The notes beneath the pieces are model-generated. The model did no database searches. It was not told the DNA's origin and was given only the letters and a program-made list of their open reading frames with translations. A DNA stretch of 54,863 nucleotides from Candidatus Omnitrophota bacterium (GTDB lineage Bacteria; Hinthialibacterota; Hinthialibacteria; Hinthialibacterales; Hinthialibacteraceae). Within the stretch, counting starts at the first letter, position 1; each line of letters begins with the position of its first letter. Shown piece by piece: positions 23,620 to 30,924 of this stretch. Both the position numbers and the translations under genes were made by a program. The DNA is taken from the NCBI GenBank assembly GCA_003598175.1, contig QZKN01000069.1, forward strand, positions 1 to 54,863. The letters run 5' to 3'.

Positions 23620-24042
23620 TCACCGACAAATTCCTTTTTCGTAAGATTTGATCAACGTTGAAATAAGTTTATCCACGCTGCAATTCTCCCGCCGCGCCAG
23701 ATGATTCAGCTTCTTGAAGTTCACGGCGGATATGTTTTTGTCGAGCGGGACCGTTTTTCCGTCGTTCCATTGCAGAACCATTCGATCATTCAACAGGAAC
23801 CTATCCGGGTAATCTTTGGCGGCCTTTTTCTTTGTTTGTTTCCAGGCTTCGTCGATGTCGCGAGTGGGAGACATCTCTCCCAACAGACCCAAACGAGCAA
23901 CGACTGCCTCTTTTAGGTTGGACGAGCCGGGCGGTAACTGAATGAGGATTTCCAACATCCCTTGCGCGAGTTTCGTTTTTGATGATCCGACTTTCATACC
24001 GGCTCTTCTCATATCCGCAAAATCTTTTCTACCTAACAACAC
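23620..24042 (-). CDS. Small protein of unknown function, GTG start
   Basis: 140 residues. The GTG at 24042 is preceded by a near-perfect ribosome binding site (AAAGGAGG, 8 bases upstream), so this is very likely a real gene. The sequence is basic and soluble. The C-terminal third (NFKKLNHLARRENCSVDKLI) resembles a helix-turn-helix or ribbon-helix-helix arrangement, but I cannot assign a family. It lies 87 bp downstream of murD2 on the same strand and could be the distal gene of that operon or independent. Confidence 0.65.
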   Translation of the reverse strand: MLLGRKDFADMRRAGMKVGSSKTKLAQGMLEILIQLPPGSSNLKEAVVARLGLLGEMSPTRDIDEAWKQTKKKAAKDYPDRFLLNDRMVLQWNDGKTVPLDKNISAVNFKKLNHLARRENCSVDKLISTLIKSYEKGICR

Positions 24043-24129: not shown

Positions 24130-25575
24130 CTACTTGTTCATCGGATTTTGAATCATCTCATCCACTTCTCCCGATTCCCCGATTTCCTTGACGTACTGCT
24201 TATAATATCTTCCTCTTTCCTTAAAATTTTTAAAAAATTCATAACTTGACGCCGCCGGTGAGAGCAGACAGATCTCGCCGGGCGCGGTGTGTTCATAAGC
24301 GAACGACACGGCTTCGCGCATGGTTGTCGTTTCCAAACAGCGCGTCGTTTCCACAATCGCGGGATTTGCCTTTTTCATCAAATTCCAGATTTTGGGGCCG
24401 GTCGATGGAAACAGAATCACGTTTTTCAGGGATTTTGCGGCGAGAAACTCGCCCAATTCCGTGTAATCGACGCCGCGATCGTGGCCGCCGAGAATGATCG
24501 TTTTCACGTTTTCACCCAACGCATTCATCGCGGCCATCGTACATTGCGGAACGGTGGAGATGGAATCGTTATAAAACAGGACGCCGCGATACACGCCGAC
24601 CGGTTCGATTCGATGTTCCAGCGGCGTGAACGTTCGCAGCGCCTCACGAATCACATCGCTGGAAACGTTTACAATTCGAGCGGTGGACACGGCGGCAAGC
24701 GCATTGTATAAATTGAAGGAACCGATCAATGGAACGTCGCCGGTAGATGCAATAACATTCTCACGATCGGCATCCACCCATTCCACAATGGCATCGCCGG
24801 CAATGGAATATCCCGGAAAATGCTTCGATTGCAAGGAAAAGGAAATCTTGTGCGCCCGACATACATTGTGAATCTTTTGCGACAACTGCGGACAATCCTG
24901 GTTGTAAATCAGAAAATCATTTTCGCATTGAAAGCGAATCAGATTGAGTTTGGCGTCGGCATAGGCGGAAAAACCGCCGTGATAATCGAGATGCTCGGGC
25001 ATGATGTTCAGCAGCACGGAAATATGCGGCCCTTTTTGTAACGTTTCAAGTTGATAACTGGACAGTTCATAGACGTAAATGGAGTCCGGTTGGTCGTCGC
25101 GCAAACAATCCAAAGCGGAAATCCCGATATTCCCAATCAACCGCACATTTTTGTTCGCGCGCTTTAAAATCGTGAAAATAAGCGAAGAGGTTGTGCTTTT
25201 GCCTTTGGTGCCGGAAACGCCGATAATCGTTCCCCGGCAATAGTCAAAAAAAAGGGTGGTGTGTGAGAGGAGTACATGTGTTTCCCGCAGAACGTTTCGT
25301 TCCCGCAATACATTGATGGAAATGCCTGCCGATTTGACGATCACATCATAGTTTGCGACAGAGGATAAATAGGATTCACCGCAATGTACGTTCACATGCG
25401 GATGGGCGTCCACCAACGCCCGCAAATCGGGTTGCAGCCGATCAAAAGGCAACCGGTCCGCAATGCCGATGGTTTTTCCCGGAAACGTGGATAACAGAAA
25501 GCGCAGAGTGCCGCATCCTTCTATCCCCATTCCCAACACCACAATCGAATGCCCCGCAAGTTCGTCGATTTTCAT
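24130..25575 (-). CDS. murD2: UDP-N-acetylmuramoyl-L-alanine-L-glutamate ligase, MurD2 type
   Basis: A 481-residue Mur ligase. The N-terminal Rossmann domain (VVLGMGIEGCGTLRFLL) binds the UDP sugar. The central ATPase has the P-loop GVSGTKGKSTT with Lys where classical MurD has Asn. HDRGVDY and the C-terminal LLSPAAASSYEFFKNFKER correspond to the MurD amino-acid-binding domain. It would ligate glutamate to UDP-MurNAc-L-Ala. The adjacent murL gene (4 bp ATGA overlap) indicates that, as in Xanthomonas, L-Glu is added and epimerised afterwards. L-Glu specificity is inferred from context and not from residues I can prove. An ordinary MurD is the alternative; whether another murD exists elsewhere is unknown. 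Confidence 0.85.
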   Translation of the reverse strand: MKIDELAGHSIVVLGMGIEGCGTLRFLLSTFPGKTIGIADRLPFDRLQPDLRALVDAHPHVNVHCGESYLSSVANYDVIVKSAGISINVLRERNVLRETHVLLSHTTLFFDYCRGTIIGVSGTKGKSTTSSLIFTILKRANKNVRLIGNIGISALDCLRDDQPDSIYVYELSSYQLETLQKGPHISVLLNIMPEHLDYHGGFSAYADAKLNLIRFQCENDFLIYNQDCPQLSQKIHNVCRAHKISFSLQSKHFPGYSIAGDAIVEWVDADRENVIASTGDVPLIGSFNLYNALAAVSTARIVNVSSDVIREALRTFTPLEHRIEPVGVYRGVLFYNDSISTVPQCTMAAMNALGENVKTIILGGHDRGVDYTELGEFLAAKSLKNVILFPSTGPKIWNLMKKANPAIVETTRCLETTTMREAVSFAYEHTAPGEICLLSPAASSYEFFKNFKERGRYYKQYVKEIGESGEVDEMIQNPMNK

Positions 25576-26999
25576 CGTTCATCATCCATCAATCGCGCGA
25601 TTTGATTGTGCATCGTTTCCATGACCCGGCGTTTCAGGAACACCGCCCATTCTGTCGGCAGAAGGTGTTCCTCGTTCCATGAAAACAGGATGGATTCGAG
25701 ATCCGAGGTGGATACCGGATATTTTGCCAGCAATTCACGTTCCGCGTACTGCAACAAAGGCGGTAAGGGAGTCCGTTCGCAACGATGTTTGGAAACGGCG
25801 AGATGCAGTGCAACCGACATTTCCTCTTTCGTGGCGATGCATTCGAACGGCCGATGGCCCTTTTCTCCCATAATCTGCAACAAAATTTCAACATTGGCCC
25901 TGTCATCCGAAACATGGCCGCCGAAAATCTCCGTCATCTCGCTGGATGTGAGAAACGGGTAAAACAACGTATAGACGGCGATGCACTTCGCGCAGCGCAG
26001 GCACCATGCATCCTGTTTTTGTTGCTTGTTGCAGCTGCGAAAATGGCGAAGCAAATGCGTATGGTTGGAAAAACAGCCGACGACCTGAATTTCACGCAAC
26101 GGACGCAGCAAACTGAAATATTCGACGTTGGAAATCAGATGGGAGCGAACGTAGCGGTTGAAGAGATGTTCAAACGGGTACGATTTGGAATATTGATGAT
26201 TGATATCCTTGTCGAGATAGCGCACATACGGCGTATTGCAACCGGCTTCGTTGGATGCGATGGCGAAATCATATCCGAACGCGGCGCAGCCAATAATCCC
26301 TAGCATCCCCAACAGCGCCGAAAACGGAGTATGGCCGTTTAAATACCCCATTTCGTTGAGTTGAAGAAGTTGCGGGCAGATTTCACGGCGAATCACGATG
26401 GGAGAACGGCATCCGGCCAGTTCGGCGATCCGCCGGGCGGATTCTGTCGGATTCAAAATCATGGCGTTGAAGTTCACGCCCAGTTCGTTCAGGATTCCGG
26501 CGCTCAATGCGGAATCTTTTCCGCCGCTGATCATAAGCAGCGGCCGCCGGGAAAGCGGTTCGCGATGAAATGCCTCAAAAGCCGTATCACTCCCGCTTGA
26601 TGCGGTTCGCAAATGCATCAAATCGGGATCCTTGAAATCGATTTGATTCATAAAAAAATACTCGCCCATCCCGCCGTAGAACAACTCGCGGAAGAACGTA
26701 GACGTTTGCGGGGGAAACGGCGTCGGTTTGATGAGGATTTCCGGCGAACAGGCGGCTTTCCAATAGCTTAGCAACTCGATGAGGCCGAGATGGAAGATCA
26801 GGCGATCGAGAATGGCCGGCGAAGGCAAACAAAAAGACTCGGAATCCGCGACCATCTCGATTCGAGGATGAAAATGAATGTCCGGTTCCAGTACGAAGTG
26901 AAAAGAAATCGACAGTTTTCCCTCCTCTCGCTTCCACGAAAAATTTTCATAGGTGAAGCGGGGATGGTTTTTACGCAACATCTGAAAAATCGGCGTCAT
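25572..26999 (-). CDS. murL: UDP-MurNAc-L-Ala-L-Glu epimerase MurL
   Basis: 475 residues. The diagnostic features are a nucleotide-binding SGGKDS motif at 158-163 (adenine nucleotide alpha-hydrolase-like fold), IASNEAGCN near 247-255 and CLRCAKC at 333-339. MurL converts the terminal L-Glu of UDP-MurNAc-L-Ala-L-Glu to D-Glu in an ATP-dependent reaction, replacing glutamate racemase MurI. The gene overlaps both neighbours by 4 bp (ATGA), placing it in one translationally coupled operon with murD2 downstream and a DUF4392 gene upstream. A thiouridylase or asparagine-synthetase-like role is less likely given the murD2 partner. Sequence recognition is from memory of the family and not from a search. 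Confidence 0.85.
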   Translation of the reverse strand: MTPIFQMLRKNHPRFTYENFSWKREEGKLSISFHFVLEPDIHFHPRIEMVADSESFCLPSPAILDRLIFHLGLIELLSYWKAACSPEILIKPTPFPPQTSTFFRELFYGGMGEYFFMNQIDFKDPDLMHLRTASSGSDTAFEAFHREPLSRRPLLMISGGKDSALSAGILNELGVNFNAMILNPTESARRIAELAGCRSPIVIRREICPQLLQLNEMGYLNGHTPFSALLGMLGIIGCAAFGYDFAIASNEAGCNTPYVRYLDKDINHQYSKSYPFEHLFNRYVRSHLISNVEYFSLLRPLREIQVVGCFSNHTHLLRHFRSCNKQQKQDAWCLRCAKCIAVYTLFYPFLTSSEMTEIFGGHVSDDRANVEILLQIMGEKGHRPFECIATKEEMSVALHLAVSKHRCERTPLPPLLQYAERELLAKYPVSTSDLESILFSWNEEHLLPTEWAVFLKRRVMETMHNQIARLMDDER

Positions 27000-27868
27000 T
27001 GGATTCCCTTATGCCTCGAGTTTGCAATGCAGATCGATTTCAATGAATTTACAATTTCCCTTTCCCTATGAATATCAAATCCATCGACAGACAGAGAGGG
27101 GATTTCCTTCACGCCATCGACGGCGCCCATCGCAACGATGGATTGCAGGAAATTGCATACCATCTCAATGTCCGGCAAAAGAGAAATGTCGGTGATCGTT
27201 TCGAGGGAGGCGATCAAACCATACGCGCCCCAATTTGACGTCGTTGCGATGATGGTAAAATCCGTTTCAACGACAGACGGGATGATGCACAGATTTGATT
27301 CGATCACCCGCGCAAATTTCCCCATGCCGATTTCGTTGCCGCCGTCGCCGACGCCGATGGTCACGACCTCATCCGCGAGCAGAAAAAAACGATCGAGAGG
27401 AGCGGTGAACGGCGTAATATCGTTTCCTCGCATGTTGTAGTATCGCCCGTCTGTCGCCCGTCCGCAACGTTCGACGGCGATTAGGCAAACCGGTCGGTAT
27501 TGGTTAAGTAGATGATCATATTGATCATCCGCCGGCTTTTTCGCAATGGGCAGTTCGATTGTCTCGATGGGCGGCACCCGTTTGAAATAATCCTTGCAGT
27601 AGCGATCGGTGATCACAATCGGTTCATAATTCAACGTTTGCAGAGCGCGAGCCAGAAAATAGGCGCCCGGCGGTCCATCCGTTTCCGCCGTTCCGTTCAC
27701 ATAAAAACCGGTGACGATAAAAACCGCGCCTCGATTGCAGCCAAGCAGATGATCGGCTGCTTGCCGGCAAAAATGGGCGGGCAGATGGGATCGCAGAGTT
27801 TCCATCCCTCTGTTCGAATGTCGAAGAATCACATTTTCGATTGTGGTGATCCGTTTTTCTTTCATCAT
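26996..27868 (-). CDS. DUF4392 protein, D-glutamate cyclase-like
   Basis: 290 residues with the hallmarks of the DUF4392 / D-glutamate cyclase C-terminal domain: TGF at 53-55 followed by ETDGPPGAYFLARAL (62-76), AVERCGRATDGRYYNMRG and the glycine-rich GVGDGGNEIGMG at 172-183. The animal enzyme DGLUCY with this domain converts D-glutamate to 5-oxo-D-proline. Here it heads the operon and overlaps murL by 4 bp (ATGA). An enzyme that removes free D-Glu fits beside MurD2/MurL, which can neither make nor reuse the free amino acid. Activity is inferred from family and context; an alternative is another reaction on the glutamyl precursor. MMKEK gives two possible starts one codon apart. Confidence 0.8.
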   Translation of the reverse strand: MMKEKRITTIENVILRHSNRGMETLRSHLPAHFCRQAADHLLGCNRGAVFIVTGFYVNGTAETDGPPGAYFLARALQTLNYEPIVITDRYCKDYFKRVPPIETIELPIAKKPADDQYDHLLNQYRPVCLIAVERCGRATDGRYYNMRGNDITPFTAPLDRFFLLADEVVTIGVGDGGNEIGMGKFARVIESNLCIIPSVVETDFTIIATTSNWGAYGLIASLETITDISLLPDIEMVCNFLQSIVAMGAVDGVKEIPSLSVDGFDIHREREIVNSLKSICIANSRHKGIQ

Positions 27869-28131: not shown

Positions 28132-28902
28132 TTAACGATTGGTGCTATTGGGAGTGCGCGCCACGCGTTTGCGCGAGCTGTTGTACCCCCCTCTGCTCGG
28201 CCCTTTTCCCGGCCCGCTTCGTGGAGGTCGCCCCGAACCTCCCCCGCCGCCGCCGCGACGAGGCTGGCGTCTTCGGGAAGGATCCGATCGTTCCGCCGAT
28301 GCAATCACAACCCGTTTTCGCGCTCCCTCGCCGATACTGAAGGTCGTGACCGCGGTATTTTCCTTGAGCGTCATATGAATAATTCTACGTTCGGGAGCGG
28401 TGAGCGGTTCCGTGCGCACATCTCGCTTGGTCCGTATGACCTGCTCGGCCAATCGTTCCGCCAAACGTTGCAAATCGTCTTCCCGCCGGTCACGGTAATT
28501 GTCAATGTCGATGATGACCTTTCGCCAATCCTCTCGATCTTCATTCAAATAACGGGCGACCAGGTATTGGAGGGAATCCAATGTCTGTCCCCGATGCCCG
28601 ATCAAAGGAGCGGCTTCCTCGCCCAAAACCACCACCAGCGACGAATCTTCCTCGCGCACTTCCATTTTTGTATCGATATTCATGTAAGCCAGAATATTCC
28701 GCAAAAAAACGATCGTTCGTATACGATCATCCTGCCGAAGGATGGCTTTCACCTGCGCCGGACGTTTGCCAATACCCAAAAATCCTTTTTTTCCGACATC
28801 CAGAGGATAGATTTCGACTTCTTCCCGTTCCGCCGATAAATGTTTCAGTGCATCCTGCACTGCCTCGTCCATTGTAATTCCTGAACCAATCGCTTCTTTC
28901 AT
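28132..28902 (-). CDS. jag: Jag/KhpB RNA-binding protein (Jag_N, KH, R3H)
   Basis: 256 residues. The order is a Jag_N domain (about 1-52, with GKKGFLGIGKRPAQVKAIL), a KH domain (about 60-140, with GEEAAPLIGHRGQTLDSLQYL) and an R3H domain (about 145-205, ending FSIGEGARKRVVIA). A Gly/Arg/Pro-rich tail (RRGGGGGGSGRPPRSG) follows. Jag proteins bind RNA and lie beside yidC in most bacteria. The gene is last of the rpmH-rnpA-yidD-yidC-jag series on the minus strand. The ATG follows GAGGTG. The disordered RGG-like tail is longer than in the common Firmicute form. Confidence 0.93.
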   Translation of the reverse strand: MKEAIGSGITMDEAVQDALKHLSAEREEVEIYPLDVGKKGFLGIGKRPAQVKAILRQDDRIRTIVFLRNILAYMNIDTKMEVREEDSSLVVVLGEEAAPLIGHRGQTLDSLQYLVARYLNEDREDWRKVIIDIDNYRDRREDDLQRLAERLAEQVIRTKRDVRTEPLTAPERRIIHMTLKENTAVTTFSIGEGARKRVVIASAERSDPSRRRQPRRGGGGGGSGRPPRSGPGKGPSRGGYNSSRKRVARTPNSTNR

Positions 28903-29034: not shown

Positions 29035-30924
29035 TTATTTCTTTTTGCTTACGACCACCGGCGCTTCCGTCTGGAACTTATCCATGACCATTCGTTGAAT
29101 CAAATCGATAAAAATACTGATGACAAAGTAGAGAATGACGCCGGACGCGATTCTCCAGAAGAAAAACACAAAGATCAGGGGAAACACTTTCATCATCGTG
29201 GCATTCGGTCCTTCGATCTTCTGCTGGCTGGTGCTGATCAGCATGAGTACGGCATAGGCTATGGGCAAAATATTAATTGTAAAAATATAGTTTCCGATCG
29301 GGATATAAAAAGCCTGATCGGGAGCGGAAAGATCATGGATCCAACCAAAGAACGGCGCGCCGCGCAATTCGAGAGCCATCCCAAACGTGGCGTACAAGGC
29401 AATGAAAATCGGAATCGTGGGCAGCATGGTCAGGCAGCCGCCCAGCGGATTGACTTTATGCTTGCGAAAGAGTTCCATCTGCTCTTTCTGCATTTTCTGA
29501 GGCTCATCCTTGAATTTCTCTTTCAATGCATTGATCTGCGGTTGAAGAGCTTGCATCTTTTTCATGGACCCCATCTGTTTTTGATACAGGGGCAGCATGA
29601 ACAACTTGACGATCAACGTAATCAGAATAATCGCGACGCCATAATTCGGAACGATCGTATACAGTCCCTGCAATAGGCGCAGCATCAAACGCGTGATCGG
29701 GCCGACGAAACTGCGGAGAAAAATTTGTTGTGCATTCGTGAGCGCCGGATGCGCGTTGGTCAACGGTTCGTCTTCCAGCGGACCGACGTACAATTTGAAT
29801 CGATCGAGATGCGTGGCTCCCGCCAGAATCTGATTGACCGGCATCCGTACGCCGACGAGAGGTTTTTGCACGGAATCGGCGCCGTCGCCCGGGCTGGAGA
29901 TTCCCTTGAAAGCAAAGTTTGTTTCCATCACCGGCACGATGGCCGACAGAAAATATTTTTGTCCGACGCCGACCCAATTGACGGTTTTTTCGGTCATCGA
30001 TAATGCCGGAACATGATAATCCGGCAGCCAATTAAACTGATTTTTGCGGATTTCATTCCACAAACCATCCGTCGGCAGAATGCCGGTGCTGCCTCCCACT
30101 TCCGTAAAAACATTGTTCATGGCATCCGTTCGCAACGAAGGAAAGCCAAATCCCCCAAACCAGGCGACGTCGTAATAATTTTCACCCGCAAACGAAACCG
30201 TTTCGTTTGTGCCATTGGTAATCCGGATCTGCAAATCCACATAATATTGATCGGGATAAAACCGAAATACCTTTTCCAGCCTCATCCCGCCGTTCTCGAA
30301 CAGGAAAACGATCTCTTTCGGTGAATCGACAACGAAATGATCGGCGTCACTTTGATACGGAATCGAAGGATCGGAAAATTCTTTTCCCCATTTCAGAATC
30401 AACCCGGCTTTCCCGTTCGCAAAAGTGGGATCAATGGCGTTCACCGGTCGAGCGCCGTTTTGCATTTTATCTTCGTAAAATTCCAATTCCAGGCCGCTGA
30501 TTTGCTGTTCGGCAGGGCTTCCGGCTTTGCGCGCCATTCGTAAATAACGCGGATCTTCGAAAAGTTCGTTGTATTTCAGCAATTTCCAGGAAATCGGAAC
30601 CGCGCCTTTTTTGGCAAACTGAACGCGATACAAGTCGCTCTCCACGATGACCGTTTCCGGATCGCTCTCTTCGTCCGACGCCGCTAACCAACCCCATGCG
30701 CTCTCCGACGAACGGAGCGATGGTTTCGGTTTTTCCGATGGAGATTTTTGTTCCGCGATGACCTCTGGGGTATCGGAAGGAGTCGGAGTCGATCGGCTCA
30801 CAACCGGCGAAGAAACCCGTGGGCGGGTTGGTTGAGGATTCATTTTATTGTTGTACCAGCTGAAAAGAATAATAATCAGCATGGACAACGCAAAACACAA
30901 AGCCAAACGCTTTTCCGTTTCCAT
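29035..30924 (-). CDS. yidC: Membrane protein insertase YidC
   Basis: 629 residues, the long Gram-negative form. There is an N-terminal membrane helix (about 8-24), a Pro/Ser-rich linker, a large periplasmic P1 beta domain (about 70-380) and the five-helix core. The core has PNYGVAIILITLIVKLFMLPLY, the cytoplasmic coiled hairpin (QKQMGSMKKMQALQPQINAL) and GGCLTMLPTIPIFIALY. The C-terminal tail is lysine-rich. YidC inserts inner-membrane proteins alone or with Sec. The gene follows yidD by 22 bp and precedes jag by 132 bp. The presence of the P1 domain supports a diderm cell envelope. Confidence 0.97.
   Translation of the reverse strand: METEKRLALCFALSMLIIILFSWYNNKMNPQPTRPRVSSPVVSRSTPTPSDTPEVIAEQKSPSEKPKPSLRSSESAWGWLAASDEESDPETVIVESDLYRVQFAKKGAVPISWKLLKYNELFEDPRYLRMARKAGSPAEQQISGLELEFYEDKMQNGARPVNAIDPTFANGKAGLILKWGKEFSDPSIPYQSDADHFVVDSPKEIVFLFENGGMRLEKVFRFYPDQYYVDLQIRITNGTNETVSFAGENYYDVAWFGGFGFPSLRTDAMNNVFTEVGGSTGILPTDGLWNEIRKNQFNWLPDYHVPALSMTEKTVNWVGVGQKYFLSAIVPVMETNFAFKGISSPGDGADSVQKPLVGVRMPVNQILAGATHLDRFKLYVGPLEDEPLTNAHPALTNAQQIFLRSFVGPITRLMLRLLQGLYTIVPNYGVAIILITLIVKLFMLPLYQKQMGSMKKMQALQPQINALKEKFKDEPQKMQKEQMELFRKHKVNPLGGCLTMLPTIPIFIALYATFGMALELRGAPFFGWIHDLSAPDQAFYIPIGNYIFTINILPIAYAVLMLISTSQQKIEGPNATMMKVFPLIFVFFFWRIASGVILYFVISIFIDLIQRMVMDKFQTEAPVVVSKKK

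What the first reader, a model, noticed from the sequence alone, without database searches (positions are those of the whole stretch)
24130..27868. Three-gene D-glutamate system: DUF4392 protein + MurL + MurD2 in one coupled operon
All three genes overlap by ATGA, so they should be translated together. MurD2 and MurL add L-Glu to UDP-MurNAc-L-Ala and then epimerise it, so no free D-Glu is needed. A cell using this route cannot put free D-Glu, released by wall turnover, back through an L-Glu-specific MurD2. The first gene carries the DUF4392 domain of D-glutamate cyclase, which would convert that D-Glu to 5-oxo-D-proline. The operon thus looks like synthesis plus disposal of D-Glu in one unit. 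To my knowledge the disposal step has not been described as part of the MurL route.
Basis: partly seen in the sequence, partly recalled or inferred. Interest (0 to 1): 0.85.

Follow-up and report, generated by a model that had tools for sequence, protein, structure and literature searches.

The report
Cell-wall pathway swap with helper gene
In this bacterium the two usual genes for putting D-glutamate into the cell wall are missing from the places they hold in its relatives, and the genome carries a three-gene unit that likely does the job by another route and whose first gene is predicted to deal with leftover D-glutamate.

Summary
In detail: DUF4392, murL and murD2 genes overlap by ATGA. The DUF4392 protein keeps all six metal ligands of TON_0340, and MurD2 carries the Glu/Arg pair of L-Glu-specific MurD2. 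Of 13 held class relatives none shows MurL or DUF4392, while 11 have MurD and 11 MurI over cut-off. In the window's genome murD is missing between mraY and ftsW (267 bp left), and murI between spoVG and a sigma-factor gene. So MurD2-MurL very likely replaced MurI-MurD. The same three-gene order, with overlaps, occurs in 1 of 80 other MurL loci (Rokubacteriota), built from different DUF4392 and MurL lineages, which suggests two recruitments. D-Glu handling is my preferred, moderate reading.

The parts
26996..27868 (-). DUF4392 (PF14336, GLUCM-like_C) gene, 290 aa, first gene of the unit
   Evidence: PF14336 E 3e-77; 114 bits to TON_0340; AF2 model pLDDT 93.8, the 15 best Foldseek hits all TON_0340 (E 5e-22, TM 0.79/0.85 for the first); E62 D64 E133 D175 E179 D262 invariant in all 29 aligned sequences and aligned with the six TON_0340 ligands
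25572..26999 (-). [quoted passage not shown]
   Evidence: PF26298/PF26299; NF041275 200 bits; SGGKD (158-162) invariant in all 28 aligned sequences; AF2 model pLDDT 92.1, nearest PDB folds QatC, QueC and TtuA, with low TM-scores
24130..25575 (-). murD2, 481 aa, predicted L-Glu-adding MurD-type ligase
   Evidence: TIGR01087 317 bits; E194 and R367 at the two positions that set L-Glu specificity in X. oryzae MurD2 (PMC8788868)
26996..26999 (-). ATGA overlap DUF4392 stop / murL start
25572..25575 (-). ATGA overlap murL stop / murD2 start
28132..28902 (-). jag/khpB, upstream neighbour; anchors the contig in this genome
   Evidence: Jag_N, KH and R3H domains; 53-66% identical in 4 same-family genomes, 53-54% in 2 same-order, 33-41% in 5 same-class genomes
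29035..30924 (-). yidC, part of the conserved block (rnpA, yidD, yidC, jag) upstream
   Evidence: matches in the 6 relatives fetched, 40-55% identity; names rnpA, yidD and yidC given by eye

Best explanation
[quoted passage not shown] Shown by sequence: the genes, their overlaps, the MurD2 specificity residues, the DUF4392 metal site, the two empty slots, and the same unit in a Rokubacteriota genome built from different sub-lineages of DUF4392 and MurL. Inferred: that the unit was imported, that it carries the essential flux, and that MurD2 and MurL act as their characterised relatives do. Most tentative: that DUF4392 acts on D-Glu (by cyclisation to 5-oxo-D-proline or another metal-dependent step). 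Confidence about 0.85 for the route swap and about 0.4 for the D-Glu role of DUF4392.
For: Swap: canonical MurI over cut-off in 11 of 13 class relatives (5 of 5 same-family), none in the window's genome. MurD over cut-off in 11 of 13 relatives (4 of 5 same-family); the window's genome has only the unit's own. MurL in 0 of 13 and DUF4392 in 0 of 13. murD slot: MraY - 267 bp - FtsW - MurG - MurC in the window's genome, against MraY-MurD-FtsW-MurG-MurC in relatives. murI slot: spoVG and sigma-gene frames 745 bp apart without murI, against 1629-1904 bp with murI in 4 same-family genomes; no N in either slot. Contig membership. Specificity: 71 of 76 MurL-linked MurDs carry Glu+Arg, 6 of 6 canonical MurDs of relatives Asp+Lys; window Glu194/Arg367. 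DUF4392: the same order with overlapping starts in L028, whose genome has no MurI over cut-off. A Pseudoalteromonas plasmid places DUF4392 between PxpA and a D-amino acid aminotransferase, with a putative hydro-lyase, a glycoside hydrolase 3 and a dipeptidase nearby; in two other plasmids it lies next to an alanine racemase.
Against: No activity is shown. PF07286, which Pfam names D-Glu_cyclase, has no match in the genome. TON_0340 was described as a probable phosphatase. 79 of 80 MurL loci examined have no DUF4392 in the fetched stretch, so MurL does not generally need it. MurI or MurD also fails to show over cut-off in three relatives without MurL (G002, G009, G011), so a missing call alone proves little in such assemblies. 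D-amino acid transaminase was not searched. The genome also has an Asp/Glu-racemase-type gene (L008; TIGR00035 134 bits, cut-off 93) and a MurI-like gene with an N-terminal signal-like stretch (L009).
Confidence: 0.45

Rival explanations
1. The route swap is real, but the DUF4392 protein is a Mn-dependent phosphatase that removes AMP, or a dead-end adenylate or phosphate ester, made by MurL, so it pulls or repairs the MurL step rather than acting on D-Glu.
For: MurL makes AMP; TON_0340 was most active on AMP among 20 phosphate compounds, with kcat/KM 190 per M per s; all six metal ligands are kept here.
Against: The authors call that activity very low but detectable. Several DUF4392 neighbours on plasmids are amino-acid or D-amino-acid enzymes, and DUF4392 occurs there without MurL.
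Confidence: 0.2
2. The MurD2-MurL pair replaced MurI-MurD, and DUF4392 is only a co-transcribed passenger with an unrelated metabolic role.
For: 79 of 80 MurL loci examined lack it; DUF4392 was not found in the 13 relatives.
Against: Two distinct DUF4392 lineages sit directly in front of two distinct MurL lineages, with overlapping starts in both.
Confidence: 0.2
3. The genome still makes free D-Glu by the MurI-like protein or the Asp/Glu racemase, and the unit's MurD uses D-Glu.
For: L009 keeps DSG, CNT and GCTH motifs; L008 is over the amino acid racemase cut-off.
Against: L009 is below the cut-off of all three MurI models it matches (87 of 328, 82 of 147 and 38 of 408 bits) and has a hydrophobic N-terminus like a signal peptide; L008 is of the Asp/Glu racemase type. 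The MurD carries the L-Glu residue pair.
Confidence: 0.07
4. Artefact: the contig is a contaminant and murI and murD are merely missing from an incomplete assembly.
For: Completeness 91.8%, contamination 4.1%; some relatives also lack one of the two calls.
Against: The neighbouring jag follows the genome's kinship, and both murI and murD are missing inside contiguous, N-free stretches whose flanking genes are present.
Confidence: 0.03

Closest known systems
MurD2-MurL alternative route of Xanthomonas oryzae (PMC8788868)
   Same: Adjacent murL and murD2; Glu/Arg specificity pair (Glu197/Arg358 in X. oryzae); no canonical murI or second murD found
   Different: Far outside the Xanthomonadales MurL model (200 of 700 bits); has a DUF4392 gene in front, where the X. 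sacchari locus has a 150-aa hypothetical protein; relatives keep the old route, so the replacement is visible
TON_0340-type DUF4392 protein (PMC5132392)
   Same: Fold and six acidic metal ligands
   Different: Here coupled to wall-precursor genes; the physiological substrate of either is not established
Mammalian D-glutamate cyclase (PMC5339696)
   Same: DUF4392 domain
   Different: No PF07286 (DUF1445) match in the protein or in the genome; activity untested
Pseudoalteromonas plasmid cluster with DUF4392, PxpA, putative hydro-lyase and D-amino acid aminotransferase (NZ_CP045419.1)
   Same: DUF4392 among D-amino-acid and possible wall-breakdown genes
   Different: No murL or murD among the annotated genes of the stretch; looks catabolic

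Membership tests
[quoted passage not shown]
   precomputed domains of P0001, the window's own protein; the local Pfam copy showed no family for it
MurL of Xanthomonadales (NF041275 equivalog) | score over the curated cut-off of 700 bits | tested here: not met
   200 bits, E 4e-59 over 14-452: a wider-family MurL, not that equivalog
MurL | ATP-dependent L-to-D epimerisation of the precursor, AMP released | not testable with these tools
   PP-loop-like fold and invariant SGGKD fit it only indirectly
MurD2 | Glu and Arg at the positions that are Asp and Lys in canonical MurD | tested here: met
   E194, R367
MurD2 | L-Glu as substrate | not testable with these tools
   needs an assay
MurL-MurD2 organism | no canonical MurI and no canonical MurD in the genome | tested here: met
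   genome 91.8% complete; both slots contiguous and empty
MurL-MurD2 organism | no D-amino acid aminotransferase | not tested
   no genome search left
DUF4392 / TON_0340 | fold and six acidic metal ligands | tested here: met
D-glutamate cyclase | DUF1445/PF07286 (Pfam name D-Glu_cyclase) with DUF4392 | tested here: not met
   protein: only PF14336; genome: 0 matches
D-glutamate cyclase | D-Glu to 5-oxo-D-proline activity | not testable with these tools
   needs an assay

The most novel reading that the evidence does not exclude
DUF4392 is a dedicated third component of the MurL route, recruited at least twice on its own: a metal-dependent enzyme that removes free D-glutamate, which becomes a waste product once a cell gives up MurI and D-Glu-specific MurD.
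Probability: 0.35. Interest if true: 0.75.

Novelty: new variant of a known kind. Interest (0 to 1): 0.6.

Why it matters
An essential, near-universal step of wall synthesis appears to have been replaced in one lineage, with both empty slots still readable; this makes the swap from free D-Glu to on-precursor epimerisation open to study. The recurrent DUF4392 partner gives a testable substrate class for a protein family found from archaea to humans whose bacterial role is unknown, and asks how cells on the MurL route deal with D-Glu from wall turnover.

Tried and rejected
Contaminant contig: rejected by the kinship of jag. Canonical murI hidden in the genome: two PF01177 matches only, an Asp/Glu-racemase-type gene and a signal-bearing MurI-like gene. 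murD relic in the slot: an 11-residue in-frame stretch resembling a relative's MurD scores 25.4 bits, reached by 1 of 500 dinucleotide shuffles; suggestive only. murI relic in its slot: none (best 20 bits). Recent import by composition: the three genes' GC 0.49-0.51 and GC3 0.57-0.61 are like their neighbours'. Empty insertion site: downstream of jag the six fetched relatives share no gene with the window; three same-family genomes share a gene of about 750 aa there, so no clean before-and-after comparison was possible. A single exclusive origin of DUF4392 in both units: the nine-row set of the window's row and eight L028-type rows (L028's own protein among them; one row is named from a Terriglobales MAG) is rejected (AU p 2.6e-6, quick tree); the set was named after an earlier tree had been seen, and an old unit with later partner replacement is not excluded. 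The MurL tree also keeps them apart (no AU test made). Wider linkage: the 386-genome survey gave matches in 11 genomes, 4 strong (over 400 bits: the window's genome and three genomes of one family) and 7 weak (31 bits or less). MurL on plasmids: 4 records matched, one opened, no DUF4392 annotated there. Two tables agree in contig length (7629) for a MurL, P0117, and a DUF4392, P0307: probably one contig, not read. Structure of MurL: PP-loop-like by fold search, but with low TM-scores (query/target: QatC 0.35/0.39, QueC 0.31/0.61, TtuA about 0.2).

Papers: PMC8788868 (parts 1-2 of 3 read), PMC5132392 (parts 1-3 of 4), PMC5339696 (passages), PMC5808125 (passages), PMC11580864 (one passage); all others search listings only. 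No paper in the held library has both terms DUF4392 and MurL; two papers hold DUF4392.
Full report
Observation. The window is a whole contig (G000:C33) of a 6.88-Mb genome, 91.8% complete with 4.1% contamination. Three minus-strand genes, DUF4392 (26996-27868), murL (25572-26999) and murD2 (24130-25575), overlap by ATGA. They match PF14336, the MurL domain pair PF26298/PF26299 (precomputed; the Pfam copy showed nothing for MurL) and TIGR01087 over its cut-off. The MurL is far from the Xanthomonadales MurL model (200 bits, cut-off 700).

Is MurD2 an L-Glu ligase? PMC8788868 (parts 1-2 of 3 read) reports that Glu197 and Arg358 of X. oryzae MurD2, in place of Asp182 and Lys348 of E. coli MurD, set the specificity. 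In an alignment of the window's MurD2, X. sacchari MurD2, 74 further MurL-linked MurDs and six canonical MurDs of relatives, the window has Glu194 and Arg367. Of the 76 MurL-linked rows 71 have Glu+Arg, 4 Asp+Arg and 1 is a gap; all 6 canonical rows have Asp+Lys.

Is the old route gone? I compared the genome with the 13 other held genomes of its class. MurL: 0 of 13 (single-protein query; alignment query). DUF4392: 0 of 13. MurD over cut-off: 11 of 13, not in G002 and G009. MurI over cut-off: 11 of 13, not in G009 and G011; 10 of 13 have both. So such calls can fail in relatives too, which is why the slots below matter. In the window's genome the unit's MurD is the only MurD over cut-off; the other matches are MurC, MurE, a MurF-like and a second MurC-like protein. 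PF01177 gives only an Asp/Glu-racemase-type protein (L008) and a 496-aa MurI-like protein (L009), which scores 38-87 bits against three MurI models with cut-offs of 147-408.

The empty slots. Six relatives' division clusters were fetched. In four of six (L120, L122, L123, L124) the listing shows MraY-MurD-FtsW-MurG-MurC in full; in the other two (L121, L125) MurD lies between MurE and MurC, but one or more neighbours' frames are hidden by longer chance frames in my listing (most names by eye, MraY-type and FtsW of L120 checked). In the window's genome the cluster reads MurE-MraY-267 bp-FtsW-MurG-MurC, the 267 bp counted to a GTG start that I chose for ftsW (domains). murI: in all five same-family genomes a sigma-factor gene lies about 0.6-0.8 kb from it, and in four of the five (not L158) spoVG lies within 0.2 kb on its other side. 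In the window's genome the spoVG and sigma frames are 745 bp apart without murI, against 1629-1904 bp in the four (SpoVG and sigma-70 domains). Neither slot holds an N. The upstream neighbour jag matches in 11 of 13 relatives: 53-66% identical in four same-family, 53-54% in two same-order and 33-41% in five same-class genomes (no match in G004 and G007), so the contig belongs here. Replacement of MurI-MurD by MurD2-MurL is the simplest reading; that the unit was imported is inferred from its absence in relatives, with no composition signal.

DUF4392 and MurL elsewhere. MurD-type genes follow murL on the same strand within 150 bp in 62, farther off in 10, in one reading frame in 2, and were not found in the stretch in 6, one of which ends inside murL. 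DUF4392 was found in 1 of 80: L028, Candidatus Rokuibacteriota, same order, the DUF4392 stop overlapping the murL start and the murL end overlapping the murD2 frame's first start. Some stretches are short, so 1 of 80 is a lower bound. That genome has no MurI over cut-off (one 23-bit match). L028's DUF4392 and the window's are in different parts of the family; holding the window's row together with eight L028-type rows is rejected (AU p 2.6e-6, quick tree; the set was named after the tree). The MurLs are also apart: the window's joins P0002 and P0003, L028's joins P0117. P0117 and the DUF4392 P0307 share a longest contig of 7629 bases, probably one contig. So the partnership probably arose more than once, which argues for function, though an old unit with later partner replacement is not excluded; and it is rare.

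What DUF4392 may do. The protein matches TON_0340 by sequence and by predicted fold, with all six ligands. TON_0340 showed very low phosphatase activity, best on AMP. The mouse D-glutamate cyclase carries DUF4392, and PMC5132392 says that such animal proteins join it to DUF1445; Pfam names that other domain (PF07286; its identity with DUF1445 is recalled) D-Glu_cyclase, and it has no match here. Of nine plasmid regions with DUF4392 that I opened (of 50 records matched), one has PxpA and a D-amino acid aminotransferase on either side, with a putative hydro-lyase, a glycoside hydrolase 3 and a dipeptidase near; two have an alanine racemase next door; one a threonine/serine dehydratase and RidA; two an aminotransferase or selenocysteine-synthase gene by annotation; two mainly transporters; one nothing telling. 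This favours an amino-acid substrate, D-Glu being the natural one beside MurL, over AMP; neither is shown.

Verdict. I found no paper in the held library with both names.

Noticed in passing
L009 1030-2517 (G000 contig C3): A 496-aa MurI-like frame with a hydrophobic, signal-peptide-like start keeps DSG, CNT and GCTH motifs; it could be an exported glutamate racemase. No relative showed a second TIGR00067 match.
   Followed up: partly
L052 4812-7472; L059 4941-7262: MurL and MurD2 lie in one reading frame (probable natural fusions) in two genomes.
   Followed up: no
window 25572-26999: The predicted MurL fold is nearest to QatC, QueC and TtuA (PP-loop proteins, recalled), which fits ATP going to AMP; an invariant CX9CX2CX2C motif (C323, C333, C336, C339) looks like a metal site (likeness to QueC recalled).
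   Followed up: partly
L169 1591-10504 (NZ_CP045419.1): Pseudoalteromonas plasmid cluster: glycoside hydrolase 3, putative hydro-lyase, PxpA, DUF4392, D-amino acid aminotransferase, MFS transporter, dipeptidase; looks like a D-Glu or wall-fragment catabolic set.
   Followed up: partly
L119 9896-10162: Possible 11-residue murD relic in the empty slot (1 of 500 shuffles as good).
   Followed up: partly
L119 8420-9895: The MraY of this genome is 491 aa against about 370 in relatives: an insert of about 120 residues.
   Followed up: no
L006 1159-2541 (G000 contig C65): A second MurC-like ligase, TIGR01082 249 bits, below the cut-off of 335; not Mpl by score.
   Followed up: no
window 23620-24042: 140-aa ORF just downstream of murD2, same strand, no Pfam match.
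   Followed up: no
G094:C72, G235:C68, G364:C44 (L127-L129): The three other strong MurL matches of the survey, all in one family, show one or two stop codons inside the match.
   Followed up: no
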